From NCBI RefSeq assembly GCF_000337575.1, contig NZ_AOIM01000009.1:179114-243113 (forward strand): 64,000 bases of DNA, read 5' to 3'. Within the stretch, counting starts at the first letter, position 1, and every line of letters starts with the position of its first letter. The notes under the pieces were generated by a model, which did no database searches, had not been told where the DNA came from, and saw only the letters and a list, made by a program, of their open reading frames with translations. The translations under genes and the position numbers were made by a program. Positions 3-41,314 of the stretch are shown one piece after another. The DNA comes from Natrialba hulunbeirensis JCM 10989 (lineage in GTDB: Archaea; Halobacteriota; Halobacteria; Halobacteriales; Natrialbaceae).

Positions 3-3000
3 GTCGACAAGAGACTCTACGAACATTTAGTCGAGGACGGGGGAGGGCCCTTGGAGTTCGTCCGCGGTATTTATGCGGCACTTCGCGAGACTCCACTTCG
101 ACCAGTCGGCCTTCGTGACCGCTTGATCGATGAGACTGGTCTCTCCGAGTCCGAAGCAGAGATAGTAGTAGCGAACTTCATGACTATCGGAGAGGTGTCA
201 GATATTCTTGAGCGGCGCGCACACCTGTTTAGTTGGCCGCTCGACGGCTACTACACGTGTCTCAATTGCGGGACGGTCTACGACACTCCGCAGTCCTCCT
301 GTACTGAGTGCGACCATCACTTCGTAACGAAACTCTCGTTGTGTAACGAGTGTGGTGAGGAATCTCTCGAGTCGTGGTTCTGCCCGAACTGTGAGCGCCT
401 CGTACCTCACACCGTCACGTCTGAAGAGGGACGGTTTGAGTATTTCCAACGAAGGGAATGCCAATGTGAGACTGTTGACGGCGAAACCCCCGAGATGGTT
501 CGAGTCTACTGGCGACCGTACTACGAGTGTACGGACTGTGGCGAGCGTCAGAAAATCGACCACCAGCACGACTGTTCCGACTGCGATGCCGCAATGGTCC
601 TCGACGACTCGATGGAAAAACACGTCTGTACTAACCCAGACTGTGACGAGGAACTCACCGTTGAGGAAGCACTGGAACCCGAATGCCATTCCTGCCACTC
701 TACTGCGTTAGAACCGCTTGCAGACGAGGAGGTTCAGTATTGTATCGAGTGTGGGGATGTCTACGAAGATCCTGAGGGACAAGAGTGTACTACTGACGAT
801 TGTAACGGCGATCTTACGCCAAAACGGTTCCTCGGATGGACGTGCAGCGATCCCGCGTGCGAGGAAGTCTATTTCGGAAATCCGCCAGCGTCGTGCAGCT
901 GTGGTAAACGGAAACTCGTTCGCTCGGCGCTGTTCGACATTAGCATGGTCGACGAATGCCAGTCCTGTGGACACGAATTTCTCCCCAACGGCCCACACGA
1001 CTGTAACTGTGACTGCCTCGAGATTAGCCGCCGAGCGAAGGGATACGGCAACTACCGAATGGTCGACGACAACGGTCGAGTTCGAGAAGCCAGCCAGTTC
1101 CCCGGTGGACTACCATGTTACCACGAGGGTCGGCGTGAGACCTATGCAAAGAATCGGCGATACGAATCGATGCTGCGCGGACCGGCCAACGCCGCTGTGA
1201 CGACTGGACGCTATCTGCTGCGTTCGCTCGCAGACCGCGACGATCCCAGTGCCTTCGGGGAATCGAAGATGCTCTCGTTCGCGGACAGCCAGTCCGACAT
1301 GAAGGAACTGGAACGGAACTTCCGCGAACCCGAAGAATCGTTCTTCTTCGATCAGTTGTTCGTCGAGAGCGTCAGATCGGTGAGCGATGGATCGGGATGG
1401 GCAACGCTTTCTGACGTGATAGAGCGTGGAGTAAACGATGCCCACCAGTACGAGGAGGAATTAGCGGGCGAAGGCGGGAACATACCGCGGATGTACGAGC
1501 AACTGACCGGCTACGACCAGTCGGTCGATGAGTACTTGACGGAGGAATTGCTGTCCCGTGCTTTGGAGGGCAAGTACAGCCGACGTTACCGTAGTAATCA
1601 GCTTAGCGACGAGGGATTGATTAACGTTCAATTAGCCACTGATATCGCCGATCTCAGCGAGGGAGAGCACGAGTTGATCGTAGAGGTTCTCGGCCAGAAC
1701 CACCACTACGAACCGAATCTAGTAGACGAGGTTGAGGACGGACACGACCATCTCAATTCACTCGTGGATCGCGGTATTCTGCGCCGCGTCGAAGAGGATG
1801 GGAGTCGATATGTGATGGTCGACGAAGATGCGCTCGAATGTGCTATCGTCGATAACGTGACGCCGACGAACTACAGTCAGACCCGAGAAACATACGCGAC
1901 CTCGGTCGAAGTCGCTCTCGGAACGGCACCCGATGATGTCGTCAAATTCACGGCGACGATAGAGGACCGTTCGGACTTTTCGCATCCACACTACTCCTTG
2001 ACCGCTCAGCAGGTTTCGACATCTGATCCGATGATGCTGCTCGCACGGGCGTACTACGGAGAGACCGACCGCGACGAGCGACGGAAACTAGAGTATCAGT
2101 TCCGGCAGGGCCGGTACCCTCATTTCCTCTCGTCGGGACCGGCGATGGAACTAGGGGTCGATATCGGCGAACTCAATACACTACTCCTCTACGGAACCCC
2201 ACCAAACGCTAACTCATATCTACAGCGAATCGGTCGCGCAGGACGATCTTCGGGTAGGTCACTTATCCACTCGGTTAGCCAGCGTAATCCAATCGACTAC
2301 TACTACCACGAGCATCCAGAGGAACTCATCGCGGCCGATCCGCAGCAAGTCCCGCTCAACGAGGTGAACCGTGAGGTGCTCTATCAGTCGCTTACATGGG
2401 CGGTCTTCGACTGGGCAGCGACGACACAGTGGGTACCGTGGCGTCGCGAACAGAGCGGTCTCGAAGATCTCATCGTCTGTAAGGATAATCCAACACCACG
2501 CACGGAACCTCGACCGAACGATGTAATGACGTTCACTGGAGTGCTATCTTCTACGAACTTCCAAGTTCAGAGCCAGAACGACAATGCACCGCTCGAAGTG
2601 CTCCGGTCTCTCCTCGACGAGAACCGCGAAGAGATTGAGCAGTGGTTAAAGAATCTCCTATCATTCAGCGTATGCTCGGTGTGTGGTAGAAAACACGTCG
2701 CAGGCTACGGAGGCGAATGCCAAGGGAAGAACTGTGAGGGAACCGTCGAGTCAGTCTTGGACAAACATGGTGGCCTCATCGAAGGTATTCTTGCTGGGAC
2801 TGAGGACGAACGGAGCTTTGAGGAGATCACCGTTGACCTATATTACGATCAGCAGGACGATATCTACGACGATATCGACGAACTCGAAAACCAGATAAGC
2901 GATCTGCGGAAGAACGAGAGGAAGGCTCGAGACCGAGATGAAAAACGGCGTCTACGGGAACAGCGAGAGCAGGTCGATCGTCAAGTTGACCATCTATACG

Positions 3001-4190
3001 ACTATCTCGATCGACTCGAGGACATGGACTTCGGTAGTTACCTGAACCGGGAAAGTCCCGCTGCGTTCGGACTGCGATCGGTCGGTAGTTCGGTTGACTA
3101 TCAACTCATCGGTGAAGACTTCGATCCCGTCAGCGACGGATCACGCGAGCGCCGAATTGCGCTTTCCGAACTACACCCGAGTGCTGCGTACCTCTACGAT
3201 AGCGAGACCTACGTCGTGACACAGGTGTACTGGGAGCCGTTGGAGTCTGCGCGCATTACTGATGATCTAGATGATGCGGCTATCTGTCCCACATGTGCTA
3301 CCGAGTACGATAGTGACACTTCCAACTGTGAGGCGTGTGGGACACGACTAAAACCGCTCGTCACCCAAGTTCCGGAGAGAGTGATCGCATACCAGCACGA
3401 TCTCCCGCTCAGTTCGACGCCGAGCACTAAGCAACTTCAACCGTCGACGGTCTACCAGAACGATCAAGAGCCGCAGAATACCTACGCTCCCGTCGAAACT
3501 GACGCTGGCGACTCGTTCGAACCGATGTTCTCCCGTGACATCGTTGATGAGAATGGGACTATTCACGGGCAGTTCGAATACGGTGACGTCACGTTGCTTG
3601 CTTCGACGAGCAAATATTGGGCGACCTACAAAGATGGTGGAGCCGATCCACTACCGAATGTCTTCGAGATGTGTGGTATCGACGGGTGTAGCGGATCGAT
3701 TGCAAAAACCGGAGACTCGGCTTACTGTACGAACAATGTCGAACATCCTGCTGAGGAGAGCGAGGCTGTCCGACCTGCAACGAAGTTCTCTACGAAGGCA
3801 GCCCGTGTCCGATTCGACAACGAAGAACTCGAACACGGCTTCGCTCACGGTCTCCGAGTCGCACTTCAGTACATCGGTGGCGTTAGCGTCAGACAGGTTC
3901 CCGAATCTATCGAGGACGAAGGAACACTGGTGTACGACTCCGATGAGGGTGGGAGCGGCATTACTGTTCTGTTGACGCAAAATGACGGTGAGAAGTTCGA
4001 ACGCGCTGTCGAACTCATGCGTGAGGCATTTTCACCAGACGAATCGAAATGCAACTGCGAGAACGGGTGTCCGTTCTGTATCTACCAGTACGGGTGTGTA
4101 GAACAAAACGACCCAGAATCGTTCGACAAGGACGAACTGCTCGAACTACTGAGCCACGACCTCCATCTCGAACCACGGAATGATGAGTGA
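3..4190 (+). CDS. DUF1998-type superfamily 2 helicase, DpdJ/DrmA-B-like (5' partial)
   Basis: The reading frame is open to the left edge and the first possible start codon is an unconvincing TTG at 51, so the true start and probably the DEAD/DEAH motor half lie outside the window. Counting from 51, several Cys-rich zinc ribbons (CxxC pairs) fill residues 70-330. A helicase C-terminal domain lies near 690-735, with MELGVDIGEL and the arginine finger QRIGRAGR. A coiled stretch covers about 940-1000. The protein ends in a CxCxxGCPxC cluster (about 1340-1350) typical of DUF1998/MrfA-type helicases. Such helicases occur in DISARM and Dpd islands. The TGT-like genes downstream favour a DpdJ-like role in DNA modification or restriction, which is inference. 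It overlaps the next gene by 11 bases, implying co-translation. Confidence 0.8.
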   Translation, partial: VDKRLYEHLVEDGGGPLEFVRGIYAALRETPLRPVGLRDRLIDETGLSESEAEIVVANFMTIGEVSDILERRAHLFSWPLDGYYTCLNCGTVYDTPQSSCTECDHHFVTKLSLCNECGEESLESWFCPNCERLVPHTVTSEEGRFEYFQRRECQCETVDGETPEMVRVYWRPYYECTDCGERQKIDHQHDCSDCDAAMVLDDSMEKHVCTNPDCDEELTVEEALEPECHSCHSTALEPLADEEVQYCIECGDVYEDPEGQECTTDDCNGDLTPKRFLGWTCSDPACEEVYFGNPPASCSCGKRKLVRSALFDISMVDECQSCGHEFLPNGPHDCNCDCLEISRRAKGYGNYRMVDDNGRVREASQFPGGLPCYHEGRRETYAKNRRYESMLRGPANAAVTTGRYLLRSLADRDDPSAFGESKMLSFADSQSDMKELERNFREPEESFFFDQLFVESVRSVSDGSGWATLSDVIERGVNDAHQYEEELAGEGGNIPRMYEQLTGYDQSVDEYLTEELLSRALEGKYSRRYRSNQLSDEGLINVQLATDIADLSEGEHELIVEVLGQNHHYEPNLVDEVEDGHDHLNSLVDRGILRRVEEDGSRYVMVDEDALECAIVDNVTPTNYSQTRETYATSVEVALGTAPDDVVKFTATIEDRSDFSHPHYSLTAQQVSTSDPMMLLARAYYGETDRDERRKLEYQFRQGRYPHFLSSGPAMELGVDIGELNTLLLYGTPPNANSYLQRIGRAGRSSGRSLIHSVSQRNPIDYYYHEHPEELIAADPQQVPLNEVNREVLYQSLTWAVFDWAATTQWVPWRREQSGLEDLIVCKDNPTPRTEPRPNDVMTFTGVLSSTNFQVQSQNDNAPLEVLRSLLDENREEIEQWLKNLLSFSVCSVCGRKHVAGYGGECQGKNCEGTVESVLDKHGGLIEGILAGTEDERSFEEITVDLYYDQQDDIYDDIDELENQISDLRKNERKARDRDEKRRLREQREQVDRQVDHLYDYLDRLEDMDFGSYLNRESPAAFGLRSVGSSVDYQLIGEDFDPVSDGSRERRIALSELHPSAAYLYDSETYVVTQVYWEPLESARITDDLDDAAICPTCATEYDSDTSNCEACGTRLKPLVTQVPERVIAYQHDLPLSSTPSTKQLQPSTVYQNDQEPQNTYAPVETDAGDSFEPMFSRDIVDENGTIHGQFEYGDVTLLASTSKYWATYKDGGADPLPNVFEMCGIDGCSGSIAKTGDSAYCTNNVEHPAEESEAVRPATKFSTKAARVRFDNEELEHGFAHGLRVALQYIGGVSVRQVPESIEDEGTLVYDSDEGGSGITVLLTQNDGEKFERAVELMREAFSPDESKCNCENGCPFCIYQYGCVEQNDPESFDKDELLELLSHDLHLEPRNDE

Positions 4191-6156
4191 TCTACTTCAC
4201 GCCGCGAATAAACTCCGAACGCAGTCACCTGAGCGCCTCTGGGGACTGTCAACAGAGAGTATCTACTCTGCCCTTGCTGCAAAAGCCTCTGATGAGTCGA
4301 TACAGGCACGACTCGAACCACACATTCGGGCAGAGATCATCAGGACAAACGACGAACGAGATAGCGATCTTGTTGTCTCAATACACGAGTGGCTACTCGG
4401 CGAACTCAGTCTCATTGAAACCGGCGATATCTCGCTACTGGGGTTGGTTATACTCTCTTCAGACGAGCCACAATCACTCATCCGAGCAGTCGCTGTCGCT
4501 CGACTCGAGTCCGCTGAGATGGTGCTGCGTTCGTGTATCGAGATCGACGGGGAAATCCCTCGACGCGAACTTGATAGCCTGCTTGCCGATGAGTGGGACG
4601 AGACTGTCCTCGCTCCACTCTTGGGATCTCTTGGGTTCCTGACCATCTATCCTGATAGCGCTGAGTTTGATCAAGAACGAATCGACGCCTCGCTGTCGGC
4701 GCAGCAGACGACGTCGACCGAGACGGCCGTCGCAAAAGCTCATCGAGAGGTTATCTCTCAGGCTATAGAAACTGCAGATGGGGCCTGTCTGGAAGCCCTC
4801 GTGCAGCGATTGACTGGATCCGTTCCGTCTAAGTCAGAACTGACGGCAGCGGAGGTGGCGACTCTCGCCACTACGCGGACAATCGTCGTCAATGGAACCG
4901 ATCTTGAAGATGCGATCCGTGACCAACGCCAAGAGTATGAGGACGAATTAGACAAGGTCCAATCACTGCTGGTACCATCGACGGAGTTGGACGTAGAGCG
5001 AGTTGAGATGGACCAGCCAGTCGGGTTTGGCGAACTCCCAGAGGATTCCGATCAGAGTGACGATGAACGGGAGGCTGCCCTCAAAGTCGTCGCTACTGTC
5101 GCGGCACACCCTGACATCGCGAGGTTCGACGTACACTTCGTCACGGAGCGGTGGCCGAGCGTAACGTCGTACTCTCTCTATCAAATACTCTCATCGGTAC
5201 CCGGTGTTGAGTGTGAAGTCAGCGACGGTCTCGTCGAATTTGAGACCGTGCCGGAAGCTGTCGACGTCGAGATTGCACGTGACGAGTACATGACTCACCT
5301 CGTTGAACGCTGTTCGGCCATTCAAAACCGCATCGACACACTCTCTCAGGAGAGGGTGTCGTTCCCACCCGTGCCTGTCGCGACCGAGTCGATGGTAGTT
5401 CGGGATTACGAATCGATCGAAAGCGGTGCTATTGCGCCGACTTACTTCACCTATACGCTCGTCGATCCGGACGCCCTTGGGGAGAAGAAGATGGACGCTT
5501 ACGTCGGAGATTCACGAGGGCTCGGTAGGGAACGAGCGCGTCTTCGTCGTTGGCACGAGAAACGGTCGTCGGGGCTGGAATCGTACACTGCGATGACCGA
5601 CCGCTTGTTCAGCCTCGGCCTCGAGCGCGACATTGAGGACAAGGTTTTGCGCATCATGACGCCGTTCGACGACGACACGTTCAACGAGTACGTGGCCCAG
5701 ATTCGGCGTCTTCTCGAGCACGGTTTCGAACTTCGCCTTCTTACCCGCCACACGAAGGAACCATGGGAATGGCGACGTCTTCAACGAAATCTGCTAAGCG
5801 AGATTAAAGAGCATCGGGATCAAGTGACGGTCCGAACCTACTCGCGGTTCAAAGAACACCAGCGAGTGACATCTGAGATGGACTTTCGTGACCTCGGTGA
5901 GATTGGGATACACGGCAAACTCCAGACGGTGGGCGCACCCGAGGAAGGTGCCGTGCTCCTCGGTTCGGCTAATTTCATGGAAAATAGCTACGATTGGAAC
6001 CCTGAGTGTGGGGTTTATACCGAACGAACGCAATTCGTTGATGCCGCGATTGAGTTCTTTGACATTGTTTGGCATGTCTCAGCGGCCGATGAGCTATCGA
6101 TAAATAGGCTACAGGAGATTCCTGATCGAAAACTGGTACCCACCTACTACAGTTGA
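4180..6156 (+). CDS. Phospholipase D-like protein (DpdK/DrmC-like)
   Basis: A 658-residue protein whose ATG overlaps the end of the helicase gene, so the two are probably co-translated. The last 85 residues carry one PLD signature: H578-G-K580 followed by GSANF (about 595-599), the phosphodiesterase core of PLD nucleases. The Asp expected four residues after Lys580 appears to be Gly585, so activity is uncertain. The N-terminal two thirds is helical and unrecognised. Known PLD partners of DUF1998 helicases are DrmC (DISARM) and DpdK (Dpd islands). The nearby TGT-like genes make DpdK the better analogy. A nuclease or DNA-binding role is inferred. The 3' end is followed by a convergent unrelated gene pair. 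Confidence 0.7.
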   Translation: MMSDLLHAANKLRTQSPERLWGLSTESIYSALAAKASDESIQARLEPHIRAEIIRTNDERDSDLVVSIHEWLLGELSLIETGDISLLGLVILSSDEPQSLIRAVAVARLESAEMVLRSCIEIDGEIPRRELDSLLADEWDETVLAPLLGSLGFLTIYPDSAEFDQERIDASLSAQQTTSTETAVAKAHREVISQAIETADGACLEALVQRLTGSVPSKSELTAAEVATLATTRTIVVNGTDLEDAIRDQRQEYEDELDKVQSLLVPSTELDVERVEMDQPVGFGELPEDSDQSDDEREAALKVVATVAAHPDIARFDVHFVTERWPSVTSYSLYQILSSVPGVECEVSDGLVEFETVPEAVDVEIARDEYMTHLVERCSAIQNRIDTLSQERVSFPPVPVATESMVVRDYESIESGAIAPTYFTYTLVDPDALGEKKMDAYVGDSRGLGRERARLRRWHEKRSSGLESYTAMTDRLFSLGLERDIEDKVLRIMTPFDDDTFNEYVAQIRRLLEHGFELRLLTRHTKEPWEWRRLQRNLLSEIKEHRDQVTVRTYSRFKEHQRVTSEMDFRDLGEIGIHGKLQTVGAPEEGAVLLGSANFMENSYDWNPECGVYTERTQFVDAAIEFFDIVWHVSAADELSINRLQEIPDRKLVPTYYS

Positions 6157-6246: not shown

Positions 6247-7050
6247 TTAGTTATCATCTTTTCTGCCGAGAGTTAGATCCGGAGATGCCTCCAAGACGAA
6301 TACACCCCCGTTATCAATAATAGGTTGAGAAATCACACTTCTGTACATCACCTCTATTTCTTCCTCGAAATCAGAATCAATAGGAGCGGGCTCAATTTCT
6401 TTCCCAAAGTATACCATCAGCTTCTCCTCCTCGTTAACAGAAGTCAGAGACTTATCGAACTCCATCCCTTTAGGTGATTGAGCATCTTCGAACCTTTTTT
6501 GAACAACAGATACTCGGCTACTGTTAGCCACGATCACATCTCGAATACCATAATTAGAGGAGACTCGGTCAATATCTAACCTCACCCCATTCACGACCAG
6601 TTTGCCTTCAGGGGAAAGAGAGAACCTTTGGTCACCTACCCAATCCATGACCGGATCAGTGTAATCATCAGAAATAGGCAGGAACAATCGATCTGCACCT
6701 ACAGTATTCTCCACTGCCAACTCGATATCATCCGGTGACAGCTCTCCCTCAATCTGCTTCGAGCCAAATCTTTCATCACCAGCCGAGTTAGCGAGATCTG
6801 TCAAAACGAACTTTTTCTCGCCATTCACCACGCTACGAATGAACGAAGACGTGGTCGGCAGAGTCACTCCTTGTTCGAAAATATTTGTTGGGACACCAGT
6901 CCTCTTCCCAAACTGCAGATATTCCAACTTGGAATCCTTTCTACCTTTGAAGTCTCTAACAGTGAAGAGATCCGGGAGCAGTGACCTATCTTCGTATTCC
7001 TCTTGCATTTCCTCAGCGAAGCCTTTCAACGAGTGCTTGTCAATGCTCAT
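6247..7050 (-). CDS. Hypothetical protein, lower-GC insert between DpdK-like and DpdA-like genes
   Basis: A 267-residue soluble acidic protein with no motif I recognise. It lies on the minus strand inside an otherwise plus-strand block. Its ATG overlaps the stop of the upstream membrane-protein gene by four bases (ATGA), so the two form one transcription unit. Base composition is visibly more AT-rich than the flanking Dpd-like genes, suggesting separate acquisition. The middle of the protein (about 120-215) alternates short hydrophobic strands and charged loops, suggesting a beta-rich fold. Function is unknown; insertion between modification genes is compatible with a defence or addiction role but does not show it. 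Confidence 0.6.
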   Translation of the reverse strand: MSIDKHSLKGFAEEMQEEYEDRSLLPDLFTVRDFKGRKDSKLEYLQFGKRTGVPTNIFEQGVTLPTTSSFIRSVVNGEKKFVLTDLANSAGDERFGSKQIEGELSPDDIELAVENTVGADRLFLPISDDYTDPVMDWVGDQRFSLSPEGKLVVNGVRLDIDRVSSNYGIRDVIVANSSRVSVVQKRFEDAQSPKGMEFDKSLTSVNEEEKLMVYFGKEIEPAPIDSDFEEEIEVMYRSVISQPIIDNGGVFVLEASPDLTLGRKDDN

Positions 7051-7433
7051 GGCTCAACCTCTTCTTCTTGTTCGGTATCGTTCATTTCTTCTGCCTCACT
7101 ATCATTTGAATATCCGTTATCAGCGAACCCATCTTCGCCCCGAGTAACCTCCGCAAAGTCTTCCCCATGACCAGAATTTGTTCTATAATCAGTTAGAGTT
7201 CTATCCAATCTCCCTTCTCGTTGACGCTGAATCTTCTTGTCTACTCTCTTCCCATTAAGACCGTGAGCCAACAAAAGGAAACCCAGAACACCCAATCCAT
7301 GTCTCGGTAGAGGAGACATGACCAAATAAGTGAGAACTGTGTACTCAGCCAGTAATAGAATAAAGCCAATTGAGCTAGTACCAGTATAGTATCCGCTGAA
7401 ATCTGGCCGGGCATAACCTGCCAAGATTACCAT
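7047..7433 (-). CDS. Small membrane protein with acidic tail
   Basis: A 128-residue protein with one or two hydrophobic segments near the N terminus (about 18-42 and 45-56), then a basic stretch (KKIQRQREGR) and a very acidic C-terminal tail rich in Glu, Asp and Asn. By the positive-inside tendency, the tail is probably cytoplasmic. It is the first gene of a two-gene minus-strand unit and overlaps the next gene by four bases. No family is recognised. It could anchor or regulate its partner. Confidence 0.55.
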   Translation of the reverse strand: MVILAGYARPDFSGYYTGTSSIGFILLLAEYTVLTYLVMSPLPRHGLGVLGFLLLAHGLNGKRVDKKIQRQREGRLDRTLTDYRTNSGHGEDFAEVTRGEDGFADNGYSNDSEAEEMNDTEQEEEVEP

Positions 7434-7859: not shown

Positions 7860-10757
7860 GTGCGATTCTACGTTCCTGAGTGGGACGATGCTGTCGACAC
7901 CCACTACGACTTCGAGCACGACGAACTCTCTACGCTCAACCGTCAGGAGCGCGATTTGGACTACATCTGGGACATCTTCGACCCCGAAACGACACCCATC
8001 GACGGCGTACTCATCTCTCGTGAACAGGTCGAAGAAACCGACCGAAAGGCCGAGCGGCTTGCGGAGTATGGCGTCTATGAGGACCCGGTACTCTCCGTGC
8101 CGAACTGGCTTCCAACCATCAGCGACTGTGGTGCGTGGGGATACAAATCTCTCCCCTTCCCACCGTACGGCAACGAGGGGATGTTGGAGTTTTACGACAC
8201 TCTCGACGTTACCGTTGGTGTCACCATCGATCACCTTGTCCTCGGCTCCGGCAAAGAGGAAGGTCGACTCTACCTCGATGAACGCGCCTTTGCGGGCGAG
8301 CTGAACAAGAGCGACGTTCCAGATGCAATTACGGACGTCGTCGACGTGATGGTCGACGAATGGCCCGCCGAGTGGCCTCCCTATATTGAGGAATACGAAC
8401 CGACCATACGGACATCAGTTAACGCTGAAGTCGAGCCTTTTACTGCTGAAGACTTTCAGGGAGATTTCGATAGCGTGCTTACGCGACTTGCACAAGATCC
8501 CCGTGCCGTCTACCGTGAAGACGACGCTCAGTTCCGTTATGAGCTCACCCTACGGAACGCCCAAGAGATGTACGACCTCTATCAGCAGCAGGACTACCCC
8601 TTCCGTCTAATGGTCGCTATTCAGGGCTGGAATCCAGACTCTTACGCTGCAGCTGCCGAGGATGTCCTCGAAATCGGCTACGATTATCTTGGTATCGGTG
8701 GCGTTGCTGGTAGTCCCATCCATGATGTCCGCACTATTGTGAAGGGCGTCGGAAAGACGGTAAAATCGTTTGAGCGCGAACACAATACTCGGGTTGACTC
8801 ACACGTCTTTGGGTTTGCGAAGACTGAAGGGTTCGAGACAATCGGTCGTACTGGAATGACCAGTTTCGATAGCGCGAGTATGCTCCGCTCCGCATGGACC
8901 GGCGGCCAAAACTATCGACTCGACCACGACGAGCGCTATGACGCCATTCGAGTTCGCTACCCATCTAGTCGCGATGATTTGGAGACAGCTATTGAAACCT
9001 CGCTGCGTGGTCGGGGAACGCTCATCGCGCTCCGTGCGTACGACGCCGGCGACTCTATCCGTGACGCTCTCGAGGACTGGTACGATTTTGTAGCCGATGT
9101 GTTACCGGCGACGCAACGCTATCTCCGCGAACATCGACACGATGAACGGTTTGACAAACGCTTGCTCCGGGATGTCGAGACAGCGTTCCGAGAGGACTTC
9201 GAATACGGGAGAGAGTTGCAGGCAAGTTTTAGCGAGAACCTTCGCGGTGACCTTGTCAAACTCCTCCGGAAAGATGATCCCGATGATCCAGTCCCATTCG
9301 CGGAATACACCGCTCTCTTGAACACGGCCACCGAGGTTCTCGAGCAGTTCCAAGAGGCAACATCGATCCTCGACTCCGCTGATGCGGTAAGTGACTACGA
9401 CCGAGTTTGGGCAATTGTTCAAGAGTATGCGACTTGGATTGGCGACGATGACCTCCTCGCGGAGTACCAGGAAACCCTTCGCGAGCGCCCATGGGAGAAG
9501 TGTGACTGTCCAATTTGTCGCAAGCACAGTATCGAGGTCTGTATCTTCCGCGGAAACGACCGGAACCGCCGACGTGGATTCCACAACACGCGGCGGTTCT
9601 ACGATGAGTTCGAAGAAAACCTTCCAAAAATTCTCGTAGCAACCAAAGGGACGGCGAGTCTCAGCGGTCACGAGACCATCGAAGACTACCTCCGAGACAA
9701 GCATCACCGATTTTGGACTCACACCCATGACCTTCCCGTAGCTGAAATCGGTGTCCTTGACGCAAACGGCGTGAATGAGTGGTGGGAAGATGCACCCGCG
9801 ATGGTTTCGTTCGCCCCGAGTCGCATGGCTGCGAATGTCGCTGAGCAAGCAGCCCGCTACCAGCATATTTTCATCCAGACCGACGATGGGACGCTCAACG
9901 ACGAGGTTGTGCAGGCAGCACATGAGAACAACTGTACGGTCACGACTTACAGTGATCCAGTTCAACTTCGCAGGGAGGTTCTCGAGACGTGCGGAGAAAA
10001 CTACGCCGTTGGCGACGACTTCCTTCCTCAACCACCTGAGATCGAGACTACCGATCTAAATATTCTCATTATTGACCAGTGCTCGGGATCAAAAGAAATT
10101 CCCGACAATGCTCCAATCTTCGATGCCGATCAGACGCTTCAATTCTCTCGTGAGGACCTACTGGCCCGCGATAACGTCCCCGGGATCGCCGCACGTGACC
10201 TCTATACTGGTCGCCAACAACAATACGTGCAGGAAGCAGTGCGCCGCCTTCGTTCGAACGGCCATAACGTTGAGCGGTACTTCATCAGTGCCGGTTTCGG
10301 TCTTATTACCGAGAACGACCTCCTCCCACCGTATGAAGTGACGTTCAGTTCGATGGGTGTTAACGAGATACGTGAACGCTCTTCGAAACTCCAGATTCAG
10401 CAGGATCTCCGACGTGTACTAGATGAGAGTGATTATGACGTGGTCTTCTTCACACTCGGTAAAGACTACTACACTAGTATTGATATCGACAAGATGGTTC
10501 AAGAAGTACGCTCAGACCGGATCGGTGTCGTGTTCAATCGAGAACTTGTTGAAGAGCAATTCGACAATATTGAGTCTGTCCCTGCTCGTACGGAAGATGC
10601 GAAGAAGCACGGTACAATCGTTGTTGGGCTTAAGGGCCTATACACGAAGAACTTCGCTCAGTACGTTAAGGATATCAATTCACTCCAACCTGAGACGATA
10701 GAAGAACTCTGCCGGCGTATTGAGGAGAAACCGGACCAGACAACGCTACATAACTAG
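7860..10757 (+). CDS. TGT-like DNA transglycosylase (DpdA-like) fused to a YaaA/DUF6884-like domain
   Basis: A 965-residue protein starting at GTG. The first 600 residues look like a tRNA-guanine transglycosylase of the DpdA type. Asp89 in DCGAWGY sits where TGT has DSGGF. A barrel segment near 270-330 ends in SFDSAS, with Asp337 as the likely nucleophile. A zinc site C548-x-C550-xx-C553 with H575 follows. Residues 733-890 resemble the YaaA/DUF6884 fold: DQCSGSKE, then ARDLYTG, FISAGFGLI and PYEVTF. DpdA enzymes swap guanine in DNA for preQ0; haloarchaea already make preQ0 for archaeosine in tRNA, so no precursor genes need be local. It could instead be an ArcS-like tRNA enzyme, but the helicase and PLD neighbours favour DNA as substrate (inference). 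Confidence 0.75.
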   Translation: MRFYVPEWDDAVDTHYDFEHDELSTLNRQERDLDYIWDIFDPETTPIDGVLISREQVEETDRKAERLAEYGVYEDPVLSVPNWLPTISDCGAWGYKSLPFPPYGNEGMLEFYDTLDVTVGVTIDHLVLGSGKEEGRLYLDERAFAGELNKSDVPDAITDVVDVMVDEWPAEWPPYIEEYEPTIRTSVNAEVEPFTAEDFQGDFDSVLTRLAQDPRAVYREDDAQFRYELTLRNAQEMYDLYQQQDYPFRLMVAIQGWNPDSYAAAAEDVLEIGYDYLGIGGVAGSPIHDVRTIVKGVGKTVKSFEREHNTRVDSHVFGFAKTEGFETIGRTGMTSFDSASMLRSAWTGGQNYRLDHDERYDAIRVRYPSSRDDLETAIETSLRGRGTLIALRAYDAGDSIRDALEDWYDFVADVLPATQRYLREHRHDERFDKRLLRDVETAFREDFEYGRELQASFSENLRGDLVKLLRKDDPDDPVPFAEYTALLNTATEVLEQFQEATSILDSADAVSDYDRVWAIVQEYATWIGDDDLLAEYQETLRERPWEKCDCPICRKHSIEVCIFRGNDRNRRRGFHNTRRFYDEFEENLPKILVATKGTASLSGHETIEDYLRDKHHRFWTHTHDLPVAEIGVLDANGVNEWWEDAPAMVSFAPSRMAANVAEQAARYQHIFIQTDDGTLNDEVVQAAHENNCTVTTYSDPVQLRREVLETCGENYAVGDDFLPQPPEIETTDLNILIIDQCSGSKEIPDNAPIFDADQTLQFSREDLLARDNVPGIAARDLYTGRQQQYVQEAVRRLRSNGHNVERYFISAGFGLITENDLLPPYEVTFSSMGVNEIRERSSKLQIQQDLRRVLDESDYDVVFFTLGKDYYTSIDIDKMVQEVRSDRIGVVFNRELVEEQFDNIESVPARTEDAKKHGTIVVGLKGLYTKNFAQYVKDINSLQPETIEELCRRIEEKPDQTTLHN

Positions 10758-10840
10758 TCGCTTCTCTATTCGCATATTTGCCGGGGTTGCTGAGGCGATA
10801 TTGGGGATCAATGAGCTAATCCATACCCGAATAAGACACA

Positions 10841-10850
10841 AATATATAAT
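10841..10850 (+). promoter_or_regulatory. TATA-like box before the second DpdA-like gene
   Basis: AATATATAAT lies about 50-60 bases before the ATG at 10902. That spacing predicts transcription starting near 10872 and a leader of about 30 bases. The gap of 144 bases from the preceding stop supports a separate promoter here. Confidence 0.45.
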
Positions 10851-10901
10851 TTCTATTCGGCCATTATCTAAGTAATAGGACAGCTTAGCCGAGCGGGAGC
10901 C

Positions 10902-11936
10902 ATGTTATACAGACGACGAACACTCAACCTCCCCAGGGGGGAACTAGAGACACCGGTACTCTTCCCAGTTCGTAATCTCGGTAAACGGTCAAGTGACAAC
11001 ACCCCTGCTTATGCGGGCACTATACCAGAATTTTCAGCAGCGATGATCAACGCCCGATCGATCCGCAATCGGAGACCAATGTGGGCGCGTCTTACGAACG
11101 GAACTTCTCTCCGTGAAGAGATGGGGGTGCCCAAAGATACGATTGTGTTTGCAGACAGCGGAGGGTTTGACTTCTCTGCTGAAGAGGTGGATACTACCCC
11201 GGAAGAAACACTCGATACACAACGTCGTCTTGACGCAGATATCTACGGTACAATCGATCTTCCTCTTTCAAGAGAGAATCGGGACGCTGAGAATGAACGT
11301 CGCGTCAACCAGAGCACACAGTACGCTCTCGAAGCAAGCAACCAGCACAACGGCGACGGGTTTCTCTTCGCAAGTGTTCACGGTTATGATCCGGAAACCA
11401 TCCGGAACAACATCCGTTACCTCGAGAAGTACGGCGACTTCGACGGTTATGCGCTCGGGAGTATGGTCCCGATTCGAACCGATTATAAGAAGGTAACTAA
11501 ATTGATACTTTCTGCCAGACAATCAACCGACAAACACCTTCATGTGTACGGACTCGGTGGTCTTGTCTACCAACCACTTCTTCTCTATCTCGGTGTTGAT
11601 AGTTTTGACTCCTCTGCGTTCATCCGTAGTGCAGGAAATCGGAATTATCTCATTCCGGGTTTCGGTGGCGAGGAACTTCGGAATATCGAATCCCTCGAGT
11701 ACCTTCCTTGTCCCTGCCCTGTATGCGGGGAGCGAAGTCTCGACGAGATACGCGAAGACCGAACAGCACTTACTCAGCACAACCTCTGGGCACTTGCAAC
11801 AGAACTTCGGCGATTCCGCTACGTTGCGGAATCGGATCGCAATATTGAGGAATATCTCGATCTGCGCTTTCAGGGCAATGATGTTACACAGCGTGCGTAT
11901 GAAACCGCTAAGCAACAAGTCCGGAGGTTAACATGA
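10902..11936 (+). CDS. Second TGT-like transglycosylase (DpdA-like)
   Basis: A compact 344-residue protein that looks like a TGT catalytic core without a PUA domain. Asp85 lies in DSGGF, the classical TGT motif. FASVHGYD corresponds to the substrate-pocket region. Asp236 in SFDSS matches the TGT nucleophile. A zinc site follows at C270-x-C272-xx-C275 with H293. Its length is shorter than tRNA-modifying archaeal TGT, which argues against a housekeeping archaeosine enzyme. It overlaps the next gene by four bases, so it heads a three-gene unit with 11933-12832 and 12829-13986. Two TGT-like proteins in one block suggest a heteromeric enzyme or two successive base-handling steps; this is inferred. 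Confidence 0.8.
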   Translation: MLYRRRTLNLPRGELETPVLFPVRNLGKRSSDNTPAYAGTIPEFSAAMINARSIRNRRPMWARLTNGTSLREEMGVPKDTIVFADSGGFDFSAEEVDTTPEETLDTQRRLDADIYGTIDLPLSRENRDAENERRVNQSTQYALEASNQHNGDGFLFASVHGYDPETIRNNIRYLEKYGDFDGYALGSMVPIRTDYKKVTKLILSARQSTDKHLHVYGLGGLVYQPLLLYLGVDSFDSSAFIRSAGNRNYLIPGFGGEELRNIESLEYLPCPCPVCGERSLDEIREDRTALTQHNLWALATELRRFRYVAESDRNIEEYLDLRFQGNDVTQRAYETAKQQVRRLT

Positions 11937-12832
11937 GCGATGAGCGATCGACTGTTCGGCCTGTTACACTCAGTCGCCTTGTTGAGCTCACATACGCCTG
12001 TGAGAATGAAACAAGAGAAACAGTGGAACTTGAAGAGAATCTAGATATGAGCCATCGGCGTGCTCGTGAAACCGTTCTTGAAGCAGTCAGAATTGATCTA
12101 CTTTCCGAAGAGGAGACTAGCACCGAACCGGTCTATACGACAACCAATGTCGGGTCCACTTTCCTAAGTGCAATTCAGTCAGAAAACTGGGGAAAAGTAA
12201 GCCAGATACTTGCTACTCGCAGCCCTCACTATGGAGCATTTGTTGATGCCGTTGATGAGTTAGAACATGCCGATCTCGGCACGCTCCTCGAGCAATTAGA
12301 GACTGAGCAGGAATTCACTCCCTATTCATTCAACCAGACTGGTGTTGAGGTCGTCGGCGACTGGGGAGAAAGGCTCGGTCGCGTCCAACGCAATGCCTTC
12401 ACTGGAAGCTATTATCCAGCAGCGCAAACACCGATTCCAAACAATTTCCACTTCATTCTATTAGATGTATACGATGAACTTGAGCAAACTGCCGGCGTTG
12501 ACCTTCGTCAGCGGTATCTCTCTATCCCGCGACTTCGAGAGGTAACGTGTGAGCGACTCAGGTGTACTCGTGAGGCGTTCAATGAGGCACTGCTTGCGCT
12601 CTGTCAGCAGAATATTGGGAAACTCGAACTCTCAGGCGCACCGCTAGATACAGGAGCAAAGAACGCTGCACTCGGCATCAAGCAGATTTCGCTCGCACAC
12701 GACGACGGTCTTGTCTCGACTTCCCAGTCCAGTCAGCAAGTAATGACCGGTGTTGAACAATTCGGAAAACTGTACTACTACCTCGCAGTTCACGATCGCG
12801 ACATCACCTTCACACAGGAGGATTACTCATGA
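11933..12832 (+). CDS. Unrecognised protein of the Dpd-like block (possible winged-helix, DpdG-like position)
   Basis: A 299-residue acidic protein. Residues 10-60 (VELTYACENETRETVELEEN and following) look like a helix-turn-helix, and residues 200-240 (REVTCERLRCTREAFNEALL) like a second helical DNA-binding segment. It overlaps both neighbours by four bases (ATGA), so it is translated with the TGT-like and ATPase genes and probably forms a complex with one of them. In bacterial Dpd islands an uncharacterised protein, DpdG, accompanies the ATPase DpdH. I cannot confirm homology by eye. Confidence 0.6.
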   Translation: MSDERSTVRPVTLSRLVELTYACENETRETVELEENLDMSHRRARETVLEAVRIDLLSEEETSTEPVYTTTNVGSTFLSAIQSENWGKVSQILATRSPHYGAFVDAVDELEHADLGTLLEQLETEQEFTPYSFNQTGVEVVGDWGERLGRVQRNAFTGSYYPAAQTPIPNNFHFILLDVYDELEQTAGVDLRQRYLSIPRLREVTCERLRCTREAFNEALLALCQQNIGKLELSGAPLDTGAKNAALGIKQISLAHDDGLVSTSQSSQQVMTGVEQFGKLYYYLAVHDRDITFTQEDYS

Positions 12833-13986
12833 ACGACGAATTTACCATCACGGACGAACAGCAGGATTACTCGCAATACGACCTCAAAGCAAATCCCTTC
12901 CCGTATAGTCCCGTCCCCGCTGAAGATCCCGAAATCTACTGTGGGCAATCCCACGTCACAGAGAGGATTAGCTCAACGGTCTCCTCGGTGCTTTCAACAG
13001 GTAAATCGAAGCATCTCGTGGTAACCGGGAAATACGGAAACGGGAAGTCTCATACCCTCAAATACACACGTTCCTTGCTTCGCGACCGCAATGACGTCAT
13101 CGTTGGCTACGTTGCCCAGCCCGGTGAAGGTTTCCTCGACATCTATCATGAGTTCACCTACGACCTCGGATTTAACCGGATTCAAGAACTCGCCTACGAG
13201 TATCTCGCTTCAGTTTCACGCGATATCACTGATGCCAACCCGATCAGTGAGGGTGCGATGAAATCTCTTATCGATGAGGGTGATGTCCTCCTTTCCGAGA
13301 TCGTCCCCGAGGCAATTAGGCGATTGAGCGACGTAACAAAGTTTTCGGACTTCGCTCGTGCGATTATCCACATGGTCTACGAAGACACGAACCTCTACGC
13401 TTGGCAGTGGCTTACCGCCGAGGGAATCCGCTATGAGCAACGTAAGGAGATGGAGATCCATAGCGCTCTCGACGACGACACGATGGGTGTCCGTGCGTTC
13501 ACTGCGCTCAAGAATCTTCTCCTCGATCTTGGGTACACTAGCATATTCGTCTTCGTTGATGAATTTGAGAGCATCGCTCGCCTTTCGCCGAAAAACGAAC
13601 AAGCAACGTTGAACAGCATTCGACACTTAATGGATCAGAACAGTTCTGGACTCTGTATGTTGTTTGGTTGTGCTCCTGAAGTCTGGCAGGATGTCATGAG
13701 CGAGTACCATGCTTTTAGTGAGCGTATTGGTCAAGAGGTCGCTCTCCGACCACTAACAGCCGAAAATCTCTATGATCTTGTTGAGAACTATCTTGGCCGG
13801 GAACGGACGATGAGCAGCCATGATAATAGTGTTCATCCATTTACGGAGGACAGCCTTGAACTAATTCTCCAAAATTCACAAGGGAACGTTCGTCAAGTTC
13901 TTTCGGTTTGCAGTCGAATGCTTGATGAAGTCGCAAAGGAGGAGCAATCAAAGATCACTACAGACTTCGCGAAAGAATTTTTCTAA
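12829..13986 (+). CDS. P-loop ATPase (AAA-type, DpdH-like candidate)
   Basis: A 385-residue ATPase. Walker A is GKYGNGKS at residues 67-74. Walker B is VFVDE with D244-E245. A helical lid follows, with a likely sensor region NVRQVLS near 350. The GxGNGKS form of Walker A with a VDE Walker B resembles ATPases of phage-defence systems such as BREX and Dpd rather than replication initiators. It is the last gene of the unit. A role as molecular switch or motor for the helicase and PLD components is inferred. It could instead be a plasmid-type AAA protein, but the overlap with the preceding gene ties it to the TGT-like genes. Confidence 0.7.
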   Translation: MNDEFTITDEQQDYSQYDLKANPFPYSPVPAEDPEIYCGQSHVTERISSTVSSVLSTGKSKHLVVTGKYGNGKSHTLKYTRSLLRDRNDVIVGYVAQPGEGFLDIYHEFTYDLGFNRIQELAYEYLASVSRDITDANPISEGAMKSLIDEGDVLLSEIVPEAIRRLSDVTKFSDFARAIIHMVYEDTNLYAWQWLTAEGIRYEQRKEMEIHSALDDDTMGVRAFTALKNLLLDLGYTSIFVFVDEFESIARLSPKNEQATLNSIRHLMDQNSSGLCMLFGCAPEVWQDVMSEYHAFSERIGQEVALRPLTAENLYDLVENYLGRERTMSSHDNSVHPFTEDSLELILQNSQGNVRQVLSVCSRMLDEVAKEEQSKITTDFAKEFF

Positions 13987-37121: not shown

Positions 37122-39836
37122 ATGCAACTCCACAACAGGGATGTCCGACAGGACGTCCGAGAACTCGGTGCACTACTCGGCGACGTTCTCGAGGACCAGA
37201 CCTCACGACAGGCCTTCGAGACGGTCGAATCGTGTCGGCGAGCGGCAATCGACTACCGGGCTGGCGAACTCGAGTCCCGTGACTCACTCATCGCCGAACT
37301 CGAGGGACTGTCGCCACACCAGCAACGCATCGTCGCGCGGGGGTTCACCTCGTACTTCGAACTGATCAACCTGGCCGAAGAGCGAGAGCGGGTGCGCTCG
37401 ATCCGCACTGAGTCCCAGGAGGGGACACTCGAGGACAGCCTCGAAACGGCGGCGGCAGAACTCGGTGAGGAGGATATCGAGACGGTACAGCAGGTACTCG
37501 ATGACGTGCTGATCGAGCCCACGTTTACGGCGCATCCGACCGAGGCGCGACGCAAGACGGTCAAGTCGAAGCTACGCGCGATTTCGATGGCACTCGAGAC
37601 GCTCGACGAGCGGCTGTTGACCGACAAGGAGTCGGGGCAGGTCTGGGCGGACATCGACTCGGAGGTGACGAGCCTCTGGCAGACGCCCCAGGTTCGCAAC
37701 CGCCAGCCCGAACCGGAGGACGAGGCCCGAAACGTTCAGTGGTACCTGCAGAACACGCTGTTCGACGTAGTCGGTGAGATTTACGACGAGTTCGCCGACG
37801 CGATCGACGAGGAGGTGGCGAGCGACCTCGATATTCCGAAGCTGTTCGAGTTCCGCTCGTGGGCCGGCAGCGACCGCGACGGCAACCCCTACGTGACGCC
37901 GGACGTGACCGCGCGGACGCTCGAACGCCAGCGGTCGGTCGTCCTCGACCGCTACCGGGAACAGCTCAAACGGCTCTCTGGTGTGTTGAGTCAGGACGGC
38001 AGCCGGATCGACCCCGGCTCCGAGTTCCAGGCGGCACTCGAGTCGGATCGCGAGCGGCTGCCGGGGACCGCCAGGACCGCGGCGGAACGCTACCCGGACG
38101 AACCCTACCGCCAGAAACTCAAGCTGATGCGCGAGCGGCTTGACCGCGTGGGTGACGTTCGACCGGGCGGCTACGACGACGCCGAGGAACTGCGAGCCGA
38201 CCTCACGGCCATCGCTACGAGCCTGCGGGACAACGGCGCGGCGAGCGTCGTCGAGGCCCACGTCGATCCGATTCGACGGCAGGTCGCCACGTTCGACTTC
38301 TCGCTCGCGAGTCTCGACCTGCGAGACCACCAGCAGAAACACACCGACGCGATCGCGGAGGCACTCGAGTCCGAGGGGATCGACTACCACGCCCTGTCCG
38401 AAGACGAACGGGCGGAGCTGTTGACCGACGCAATCTTGCAGGACGAACCGGTGATCGACCTGGCCGATGCGGTGAGCGACGATCTCTCGGACGACTCCGC
38501 GCGCGTTCTGCGGCTGTTCGACAGCCTCGCCGACTGGCAACGCGAGTACGGCGTCGAGGCGATCGACACCTACTGCATCTCGATGACCGAGGAGCCGAGC
38601 CACGTCCTCGAGGTGCTGTTCCTGGCCGACCAGGCCGGTGTCGTCTCGCTGCCGGAACACTGTGGTATCGACGTCGTCCCGCTGCTCGAGACCGAGTACG
38701 CGCTTTCGGGGGCGCGCCGGATTATGGGCTCGCTGTTCGAGAACGAGGCCTACGTCCAGGCGCTCGAAGCGCGCGGGCGCACCCAGGAGATCATGCTCGG
38801 CTACTCCGACTCGAACAAGGAGAACGGCTTCCTGGCGGCGAACTGGTCGCTGTACAAGAATCAGCGTCGGCTCGGCGAGATCTGTGACGACCACGACGTG
38901 ACGATGCGGCTGTTCCACGGCCGTGGTGGCTCCATCTCGCGGGGTGGCGGCCCGATGAACGAAGCGCTGCTCGCGCTGCCAAACAGCACCGTGACGGGCC
39001 AGGTCAAGTTCACCGAGCAGGGCGAGGCGATCGCCGAGAAGTACGCCAACCCGCGCATCGCCGAGCGCAACATCGAGCAGATGCTCAACGCCCAGCTTCG
39101 GGCGCGCCTCTACGCGAAAGACCAGCCCGAAGACGAGATTCGCGAGGAGTGGATCGAGGCCATGGAGACAATGGCCGACGCGGCCCGCCGCGAGTACCGC
39201 GACCTCCTGGAGAGCGACGGCTTCGTCCGGTACTTCGAACAGGCGACGCCGATTACCGTCATCGAGGACCTGGACCTCGGCTCGCGGCCCGCCTCGCGTT
39301 CCGGCGAGCGGACCGTCGAGGACCTGCGGGCGATTCCGTGGGTGTTCTCCTGGACCCAGTCCCGGTGCATCCTGCCGGGCTGGTACGCCATTGCGACGGG
39401 AATCGACGCGTACCTGGATGGCGATGGGCCACAAGACGACGGCGGCGACGTGGAGACGCTCCAGACCATGTACGAGGAGTGGCCGTTCTTCCGAACCACG
39501 CTCGACAACGCCGCGCTCTCGCTCTCGCGGACCGAACTCGAAATCGCCGAGCAGTACGCGAACCTCGCGGACGAGGATCTGCGCGAGCAGTTCTTCCCAC
39601 GGCTGACCGGCGAGTACGAGCGCGCAGCCGACCTGATCACCGACATCGGCCAGCGCGACCAGCTTCACACCCGCGACTGGCTCGGTGAGAACCTGGAGCG
39701 ACGAAACCCCTACGTCGACCCACTGAACCTGCTTCAGACGTACCTTCTCGACAGAACCCACCGGACCGACATCGAAGAACGAACGCTCCGGCTGACGGTG
39801 AAGGGGATCGCGGCGGGGATGAAAAACACTGGGTAA
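37122..39836 (+). CDS. ppc: Phosphoenolpyruvate carboxylase
   Basis: A 904-residue protein of the bacterial-type PEP carboxylase family, which adds bicarbonate to phosphoenolpyruvate to give oxaloacetate and refills the citric acid cycle. Signature motifs are present: catalytic His138 in FTAHPTEARRKTV, GSDRDGNPYV near 249, GYSDSNKENGF near 560, and the substrate loop FHGRGGSISRGGGP near 597. Length matches the family. It is a cytoplasmic core gene, monocistronic here, with high GC unlike the island. The long open frames on its opposite strand are composition shadows. Confidence 0.97.
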   Translation: MQLHNRDVRQDVRELGALLGDVLEDQTSRQAFETVESCRRAAIDYRAGELESRDSLIAELEGLSPHQQRIVARGFTSYFELINLAEERERVRSIRTESQEGTLEDSLETAAAELGEEDIETVQQVLDDVLIEPTFTAHPTEARRKTVKSKLRAISMALETLDERLLTDKESGQVWADIDSEVTSLWQTPQVRNRQPEPEDEARNVQWYLQNTLFDVVGEIYDEFADAIDEEVASDLDIPKLFEFRSWAGSDRDGNPYVTPDVTARTLERQRSVVLDRYREQLKRLSGVLSQDGSRIDPGSEFQAALESDRERLPGTARTAAERYPDEPYRQKLKLMRERLDRVGDVRPGGYDDAEELRADLTAIATSLRDNGAASVVEAHVDPIRRQVATFDFSLASLDLRDHQQKHTDAIAEALESEGIDYHALSEDERAELLTDAILQDEPVIDLADAVSDDLSDDSARVLRLFDSLADWQREYGVEAIDTYCISMTEEPSHVLEVLFLADQAGVVSLPEHCGIDVVPLLETEYALSGARRIMGSLFENEAYVQALEARGRTQEIMLGYSDSNKENGFLAANWSLYKNQRRLGEICDDHDVTMRLFHGRGGSISRGGGPMNEALLALPNSTVTGQVKFTEQGEAIAEKYANPRIAERNIEQMLNAQLRARLYAKDQPEDEIREEWIEAMETMADAARREYRDLLESDGFVRYFEQATPITVIEDLDLGSRPASRSGERTVEDLRAIPWVFSWTQSRCILPGWYAIATGIDAYLDGDGPQDDGGDVETLQTMYEEWPFFRTTLDNAALSLSRTELEIAEQYANLADEDLREQFFPRLTGEYERAADLITDIGQRDQLHTRDWLGENLERRNPYVDPLNLLQTYLLDRTHRTDIEERTLRLTVKGIAAGMKNTG

Positions 39837-39904
39837 GCATACGTTCGACGGCGTACGGTACTCGAGTACGGCCTCGCGCTACTCGCTACTCGGTCTCTCT
39901 TTCA

Positions 39905-40066
39905 CTACTCGAGGCGGTGGAACTGATACAGTTCGAGCGCGAACCCAATGAGACCGACAGGGAGAGCTAGCAGCAAGAACGCGCCGCCGAACTCGAGTGC
40001 CAGTTCGCCGAAGCCGCCGACGAGCGCGAGTACGAGTGCGAATCGCTGGAACGCAGCGCCGATCAT
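39905..40066 (-). CDS. Small membrane protein downstream of moxR
   Basis: A 53-residue protein: MIGAAFQRFALVLALVGGFG, then ELALEFGGAFLLLALPVGLI and a C-terminal ELYQFHRLE. Two hydrophobic helices are evident. It starts 7 bases after the moxR stop on the same strand, so it belongs to that operon. Function unknown; small membrane proteins often accompany MoxR ATPases. Confidence 0.65.
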   Translation of the reverse strand: MIGAAFQRFALVLALVGGFGELALEFGGAFLLLALPVGLIGFALELYQFHRLE

Positions 40067-40073
40067 CTATTGG

Positions 40074-41027: not shown

Positions 41028-41229
41028 GGAAACGCCGTCGGCCGCTCGTGTCAAATGAGTTTCGCTCGCGGTGAGTTCCGTCGTGCGTGGGCGGGGGCTG
41101 TGTCCGTCTGTGTTCGTGTATGCTCGTGGTAGTTCGATCGCTGACGTTCGATAGAGTGTCCGTGAACCGCTCCCAACCTGGGAAACAGATCGAAACCGGT
41201 AAAAACGATACCCGAGTACAAACAGGTGA

Positions 41230-41314
41230 GCCGAGATAGCCTAGCCCGGCCAAGGCGGCAGATTCGAAATCTGCTGTCCTCACGGACTCGGGAGTTCAAA
41301 TCTCCCTCTCGGCG
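41230..41314 (+). tRNA. tRNA-Ser(CGA)
   Basis: The 85-base gene has acceptor arms GCCGAGA and TCTCGGC with discriminator G, and an anticodon arm CAGAT-TTCGAAA-type loop giving anticodon CGA. The long variable arm around TGTCCTCACGGACT marks class II tRNA-Ser. The T arm is GGGAG-TTCAAAT-CTCCC. CCA is not encoded, as usual in haloarchaea. Partial copies of its 3' end follow at 41446 and 41589. Confidence 0.92.

What the first reader, a model, noticed from the sequence alone, without database searches (positions are those of the whole stretch)
7860..11936. Two different TGT-like enzymes side by side, one fused to a YaaA/DUF6884-like domain
Both carry an Asp motif at the DSGGF position (DCGAWGY and DSGGF), a SFDS nucleophile motif and a CxCxxC...H zinc site, so both may be active. 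The 965-residue one adds a domain with DQCSGSKE, ARDLYTG and FISAGFGLI at its end. A pair could form a heterodimer like eukaryotic TGT, or do insertion and further conversion. The extra domain might replace a separate base-tailoring protein such as DpdC.
Basis: partly seen in the sequence, partly recalled or inferred. Interest (0 to 1): 0.7.

Follow-up and report, generated by a model that had tools for sequence, protein, structure and literature searches.

The report
DNA-modifying Dpd locus with two transglycosylases
A salt-loving archaeon carries a probable antiviral system that swaps guanines in its own DNA for 7-deazaguanines; its base-swapping enzyme is fused to the base-finishing enzyme (DpdC) and almost always travels with a second, different base-swapping enzyme whose role is unknown and testable.

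Summary
The 965-aa protein is a true DpdA (NCBIfam DpdA 276 bits, cut-off 200) fused at its C-terminus to a DpdC/DUF6884 domain, the only DUF6884 in the genome. The 344-aa protein (TGT2) is a bare TGT core: all catalytic aspartates and the zinc site kept, no PUA domain, its own clade apart from housekeeping arcTGT and from DpdA. Over 391 haloarchaeal genomes DpdA and TGT2 co-occur 55/56 (p about 6e-65), even where unlinked. TGT2 always heads a unit with an unknown 299-aa protein and a BrxD-like ATPase. The genome has no DpdB. The surroundings (two YprA-type helicases, PLD nuclease, halophilic archaeon) match BRIGADE, named in a 2025 preprint whose main text mentions neither the fusion nor a second TGT. 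Beyond haloarchaea, long bacterial DpdAs carry the same DpdC domain at the opposite end, and about half of 88 examined DpdA loci hold a second TGT-fold protein, from at least two clades. Best reading: a Dpd-type DNA 7-deazaguanine modification-restriction system in which DpdA-DpdC makes dPreQ0 then dADG, and TGT2-p299-ATPase is an obligate partner module doing DpdB's job. Heterodimer formation remains untested. New variant of a known kind.

The parts
7860..10037 (+). DpdA (DNA-guanine transglycosylase) part of the 965-aa fusion, residues 1-726, with insertions and a C-terminal extension relative to bacterial DpdA
   Evidence: NCBIfam NF041059 275.6 bits, cut-off 200; PDB 7ui4 E 2.7e-40; catalytic residues and CxCxxC...H kept; in the DpdA clade
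10038..10757 (+). DpdC-like (DUF6884/YaaA superfamily) domain, residues 727-965, C-terminal to DpdA
   Evidence: Pfam DUF6884 above gathering score; PADLOC DpdC models match all 37 homologues; homologous to the N-terminal domain of 53 long bacterial DpdA proteins; all invariant residues kept
10902..11936 (+). TGT2: second tRNA-guanine-transglycosylase-like protein, catalytic core only, no PUA domain
   Evidence: Pfam TGT E 8e-29; own clade with support 100; co-occurs with DpdA in 55 of 56 genomes
11933..12832 (+). p299: uncharacterised partner protein, start overlaps the TGT2 stop by 4 bases; weak winged-helix resemblance at the N-terminus (inference)
   Evidence: follows TGT2 in every locus with an intact unit; no Pfam, PADLOC or PDB match of note
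12829..13986 (+). BrxD-like ATPase, start overlaps the p299 stop by 4 bases
   Evidence: Pfam BrxC_BrxD 5e-15, PADLOC BrxD 3e-11; third gene of the TGT2 unit
51..4190 (+). second YprA/MrfA-type helicase; the frame is open from about 1.3 kb upstream of the window
   Evidence: Helicase_C and MZB domains; open frame joined across the window edge; 36% identical to the upstream helicase
4180..6156 (+). PLD-family nuclease
   Evidence: Pfam PLDc_2 2.6e-6

Best explanation
The locus is a Dpd-type (BRIGADE-type) DNA modification-restriction system of haloarchaea. The DpdA part of the 965-aa protein exchanges guanine in DNA for preQ0 made by the host's archaeosine pathway; the fused DpdC domain hydrates the nitrile, giving dADG as the self mark. 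TGT2, p299 and the BrxD-like ATPase form an obligate partner module that supplies the ATP-dependent part of modification (done by DpdB in bacterial Dpd, absent here) and a second DNA-directed TGT active site. The two YprA helicases and the PLD nuclease attack unmarked DNA. Shown here: identities, fusion, co-occurrence, conserved gene unit, absence of DpdB, conserved catalytic residues. Inferred: the chemistry on DNA, TGT2's substrate, and replacement of DpdB by the TGT2 module.
For: DpdA membership; DpdC domain and no other DUF6884 in the genome. DpdA-DpdC fused in about 32 and split but adjacent in about 24 of 56 haloarchaeal genomes, and fused in the opposite order in bacteria. DpdA and TGT2 co-occur in 55 of 56 genomes with DpdA, against TGT2 in 1 of 335 genomes without it; of the two exceptions one is a decayed TGT2 locus and the other has DpdA at a contig edge. 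TGT2-p299-BrxD is an invariant unit, also in G508 outside the class. No DpdB or DndB in the genome. QueC in the genome; preQ0 synthesis or precursor-transporter genes beside many sister loci. In G131 consecutive same-strand genes read TGT2-p299-BrxD-DpdA/DpdC-folE-queD-queE-queC. Two YprA helicases and PLD next door.
Against: No biochemistry for any of these proteins. TGT2's closest relatives by profile are tRNA enzymes (TIGR00432; 1iq8), so an RNA substrate is not excluded. A base-pocket Gln that is invariant in DpdA, arcTGT and the bacterial second TGTs is His in 55 of 57 TGT2. Mutual exclusion of DpdB and confident second TGTs in bacteria is weakened by DpdB-bearing cyanobacterial loci that carry a divergent TGT-fold protein and by G273, which has both a DGQHR protein and TGT2.
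Confidence: 0.6

Rival explanations
1. DpdA and TGT2 form a heterodimeric DNA transglycosylase (both subunits active), for instance each serving one strand of the target site.
For: Near-perfect co-occurrence; TGT enzymes are usually dimers (established knowledge); second TGTs recur in Dpd loci of several phyla; both proteins keep catalytic and zinc residues.
Against: TGT2 is tied more tightly to p299 and the ATPase than to DpdA, from which it can lie several kb away or on the other strand. No complex prediction could be run. Alphaproteobacterial Dpd loci have DpdA without a second TGT.
Confidence: 0.2
2. TGT2 installs or recognises a different base (or the same base at different sites) independently of DpdA, so that the DNA carries two marks, or TGT2 acts in sensing or restriction rather than in modification.
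For: Base-pocket Gln to His in 55/57 TGT2; TGT2 sits in a BREX-like ATPase unit; TGT-like proteins also occur with ATPases in loci without DpdA and in the published BRC systems (PMC12839542).
Against: TGT2 almost never occurs without DpdA, so it is not a free-standing system.
Confidence: 0.2
3. TGT2 is a tRNA- or other RNA-directed enzyme related to arcTGT that merely hitchhikes in the island.
For: Closest solved structure and profile are archaeosine TGT.
Against: Housekeeping arcTGT and ArcS are present elsewhere in the genome; TGT2 lacks the PUA domain and forms a separate clade; hitchhiking does not explain 55/56 co-occurrence with dispersed gene positions.
Confidence: 0.1

Closest known systems
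BRIGADE (Bell et al. 2025 preprint, PMC12458937)
   Same: Halophilic archaeon, two YprA-family helicases, PLD nuclease, Dpd-like 7-deazaguanine genes
   Different: The main text mentions neither the DpdA-DpdC fusion nor a second TGT nor the TGT2-p299-BrxD unit; its supplements could not be read
Canonical bacterial Dpd system (dpdA-K)
   Same: DpdA and DpdC modification chemistry, PLD nuclease, YprA/DpdJ-type helicase
   Different: No DpdB; DpdC fused to DpdA; extra TGT, p299 and BrxD-like ATPase
BREX-Related Capture (BRC) systems (PMC12839542)
   Same: A TGT with BREX-type ATPases
   Different: HerA/PglZ-centred, no DpdC, single TGT; the BRC-like TGT in L140 is a long, unplaced branch
Archaeosine tRNA-guanine transglycosylase (TgtA, arcTGT)
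   Same: Catalytic fold, motifs and zinc site of TGT2
   Different: TGT2 scores 135 against a cut-off of 350, lacks a PUA domain and is a separate clade
Eukaryotic QTRT1/QTRT2 heterodimer
   Same: Two paralogous TGT subunits as a possible analogy
   Different: QTRT2 is catalytically inactive (established knowledge); both proteins here keep the catalytic residues

Membership tests
DpdA | NCBIfam equivalog NF041059 above cut-off | tested here: met
   275.6 bits, cut-off 200
DpdA | TGT catalytic Asp residues and Zn site | tested here: met
   three Asp and CxCxxC...H aligned in 12 of 12 DpdA including the window's
DpdA | exchange of guanine for preQ0 in DNA | not testable with these tools
   needs biochemistry
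DpdC | DUF6884/DpdC profile match | tested here: met
   DUF6884 34.4 bits, cut-off 30; PADLOC DpdC 1.2e-8 for the domain, all 37 homologues match
DpdC | YaaA-like fold | tested here: inconclusive
   pLDDT 86 model, no PDB match at E <= 0.001; sequence profile link to YaaA in 30 of 37 homologues
Canonical Dpd system | DpdB present | tested here: not met
   no NF041060 or DndB match in the whole genome
BRIGADE | two YprA-like helicases with a PLD nuclease in a halophilic archaeon | tested here: met
BRIGADE | 7-deazaguanine biosynthetic cluster in the locus | tested here: inconclusive
   TGT-type enzymes present; preQ0 synthesis genes not local here, QueC elsewhere in the genome; local in many sister loci
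BRIGADE | helicase inside the BRIGADE clade of the YprA tree | not tested
   reference sequences not held
arcTGT (for TGT2) | TIGR00432 above cut-off | tested here: not met
   135.3 bits against 350
arcTGT (for TGT2) | C-terminal PUA domain | tested here: not met
   344 aa, only the TGT domain found
arcTGT (for TGT2) | position inside the arcTGT clade | tested here: not met
   arcTGT one clade (99), TGT2 one clade (100)
QTRT1/QTRT2-type heterodimer | one subunit lacks catalytic residues | tested here: not met
   catalytic Asp and Zn ligands kept in 57 of 57 TGT2 and 12 of 12 DpdA
QTRT1/QTRT2-type heterodimer | physical association of the two subunits | not testable with these tools
   no complex prediction available

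The most novel reading that the evidence does not exclude
DNA 7-deazaguanine modification commonly uses two different TGT enzymes. A second TGT was recruited to DpdA loci at least twice (arcTGT-like in haloarchaea, DpdA-like in Bacillota and Chloroflexota, others in cyanobacteria), forming heteromeric DNA transglycosylases or installing two distinct marks; in haloarchaea the altered base pocket (Gln to His) means that TGT2 handles a base other than preQ0.
Probability: 0.2. Interest if true: 0.8.

Novelty: new variant of a known kind. Interest (0 to 1): 0.62.

Why it matters
It extends DNA 7-deazaguanine modification to a lineage-wide archaeal variant without DpdB and gives a clean genetic question: why does DpdA need a second TGT? 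The opposite-order fusions place DpdC's step on the same molecule as DpdA. Annotation pipelines name the fusion 'queuine tRNA-ribosyltransferase tRNA-guanine transglycosylase' and TGT2 'tRNA-guanine transglycosylase', so surveys that require DpdA plus DpdB (for example PMC11888242) would miss these loci. Haloviruses with 7-deazaguanine DNA are known (PMC6884629), so a host-virus contest over the same marks becomes testable.

Tried and rejected
TGT2 as a general replacement for DpdB, read from mutual exclusion in bacterial loci (0 of 23 DpdB loci have a confident second TGT, p 2e-5), was weakened when the small protein next to DpdA in many DpdB-bearing cyanobacterial loci proved TGT-folded (its profile comparison alone had failed); kept only for the haloarchaeal case. 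A search of viral contigs with either protein found no relative. p299 matched nothing of note. Fold search of the DpdC domain gave no significant match (best AF0587, E 0.014). One clade for all second TGTs is not clearly rejected (p 0.067), but TGT2 with the Bacillota/Chloroflexota type is (p 0.016) and TGT2 with DpdA is (p 0.010); the test of TGT2 with arcTGT did not finish. The apparent 1379-aa helicase was a window-edge artefact.

Full report
What is there. The two ORFs are real and adjacent on the + strand. The 965-aa protein passes the NCBIfam DpdA equivalog cut-off (275.6 against 200 bits) and aligns with the solved DNA-guanine transglycosylase 7ui4 (E 2.7e-40), including the DCGA motif. 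Its C-terminus (residues 727-965) matches DUF6884 above the gathering score and the PADLOC DpdC models; a published survey gives DUF6884 as the domain of DpdC (PMC11888242). The 344-aa protein (TGT2) is a TGT core nearest to, but far below the cut-off of, archaeosine TGT (135 against 350 bits), with no PUA domain.

Active or not. On an alignment of all TGT types used here, the general-base Asp, the base-binding Asp and the nucleophile Asp are kept in 57/57 TGT2 and 12/12 DpdA, as are the zinc ligands. One base-pocket position, Gln in every DpdA, arcTGT, bacterial Tgt and Bacillota/Chloroflexota or cyanobacterial second TGT examined, is His in 55/57 TGT2. The residue equivalences to Zymomonas TGT are from established knowledge.

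Phylogeny. In a tree of 96 TGT-family proteins TGT2 (100), arcTGT (99) and DpdA (99) are each one clade. The AU test rejects joining TGT2 with DpdA (p 0.010) or with the Bacillota/Chloroflexota second TGT (p 0.016); joining it with the cyanobacterial type is not rejected. Only two bacterial Tgt were in the tree. The genome's own arcTGT and ArcS lie on other contigs.

Co-occurrence. Over the same 391 haloarchaeal genomes, 56 have DpdA and 56 have TGT2 (at least 53% identity, against at most 34% for arcTGT), 55 in common (Fisher p 6e-65; genomes are related, so this is not an independent-sample probability). The TGT2-only genome has p299 cut by a transposase and no DpdA; the DpdA-only genome has DpdA at a contig edge. 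TGT2 is usually the next gene, but in about a dozen genomes it lies kilobases away, on the other strand or on another contig, still followed by p299 and the BrxD-like ATPase. The same unit, with DpdA 18 kb away, occurs outside the class in G508.

Fusion. DpdA and DpdC are fused in about 32 and split but adjacent in about 24 of the 56 genomes. All 53 long bacterial DpdA proteins tested carry a homologue of the window's DpdC domain at the N-terminus (E 4e-5 to 7e-27). Opposite orders imply separate fusions and argue for coupled steps. The 15 invariant residues of 37 DpdC domains are all present in the window.

Surroundings. Just upstream stand two YprA/MrfA-type helicases, 36% identical to each other, and a PLD nuclease. 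This is the composition of BRIGADE systems, reported only from halophilic archaea. The genome has QueC but no DpdB or DndB and no other DUF6884 protein. Sister loci often carry queC/D/E/folE or a precursor transporter; in G131 one run of same-strand genes holds the TGT2 unit, DpdA/DpdC and preQ0 genes.

Beyond haloarchaea. Among 88 further DpdA loci (not all independent), 29 have a confident second TGT within the fetched flanks and 17, mostly DpdB-bearing cyanobacterial loci, have a small protein whose predicted structure matches TGTs (best E 1.3e-7, 122 matches at E <= 0.001, though the model is only of moderate confidence, pLDDT 69). Second TGTs are thus recurrent but not universal: alphaproteobacterial loci with two DpdB genes have none.

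Mechanism. Most likely DpdA inserts preQ0 into DNA, the fused DpdC domain makes ADG, TGT2-p299-ATPase is a required modification partner standing in for DpdB, and the helicases with the PLD nuclease restrict unmarked DNA. Bacterial DpdA, DpdB and DpdC chemistry is established knowledge; its extension to this locus and everything about TGT2's substrate is inference.

Noticed in passing
L267 (7386-12270), L237 (5956-10655), L236 (3133-5735): Another haloarchaeal set of paired or ATPase-linked TGTs, e.g. TGT 673 aa - ATPase-like 516 aa - TGT 413 aa, not DpdA by profile; also His at the base-pocket position.
   Followed up: partly
L162:12138-12974 and alignments A3/A8: A 279-aa cyanobacterial protein annotated hypothetical, right after DpdA in DpdB-bearing loci, is predicted to have a TGT fold with conserved Asp residues and no zinc site.
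   Followed up: yes
L140 (4887-16813), Haloplanus sp. HW8-1 plasmid: Divergent TGT beside BREX-type ATPases, GNAT and QueC/QueE/QueD, resembling the published BRC systems.
   Followed up: no
window 6247-7433: Two minus-strand ORFs (267 and 128 aa) with no family match lie between the PLD gene and DpdA in low-GC sequence; no sister locus examined has them.
   Followed up: no
window 38000-41314: GC content steps from about 0.50-0.55 to about 0.65 near 38 kb with a tRNA-Ser at 41230-41314, suggesting the edge of a genomic island.
   Followed up: no
L034:3353-5473: GmrSD/DUF262-type restriction protein upstream of the locus, i.e. a defence island.
   Followed up: no
L107:10700-11889, L266:9177-11047: Decayed copies: TGT2 (with whole or partial p299) left behind next to transposases without DpdA.
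   Followed up: partly
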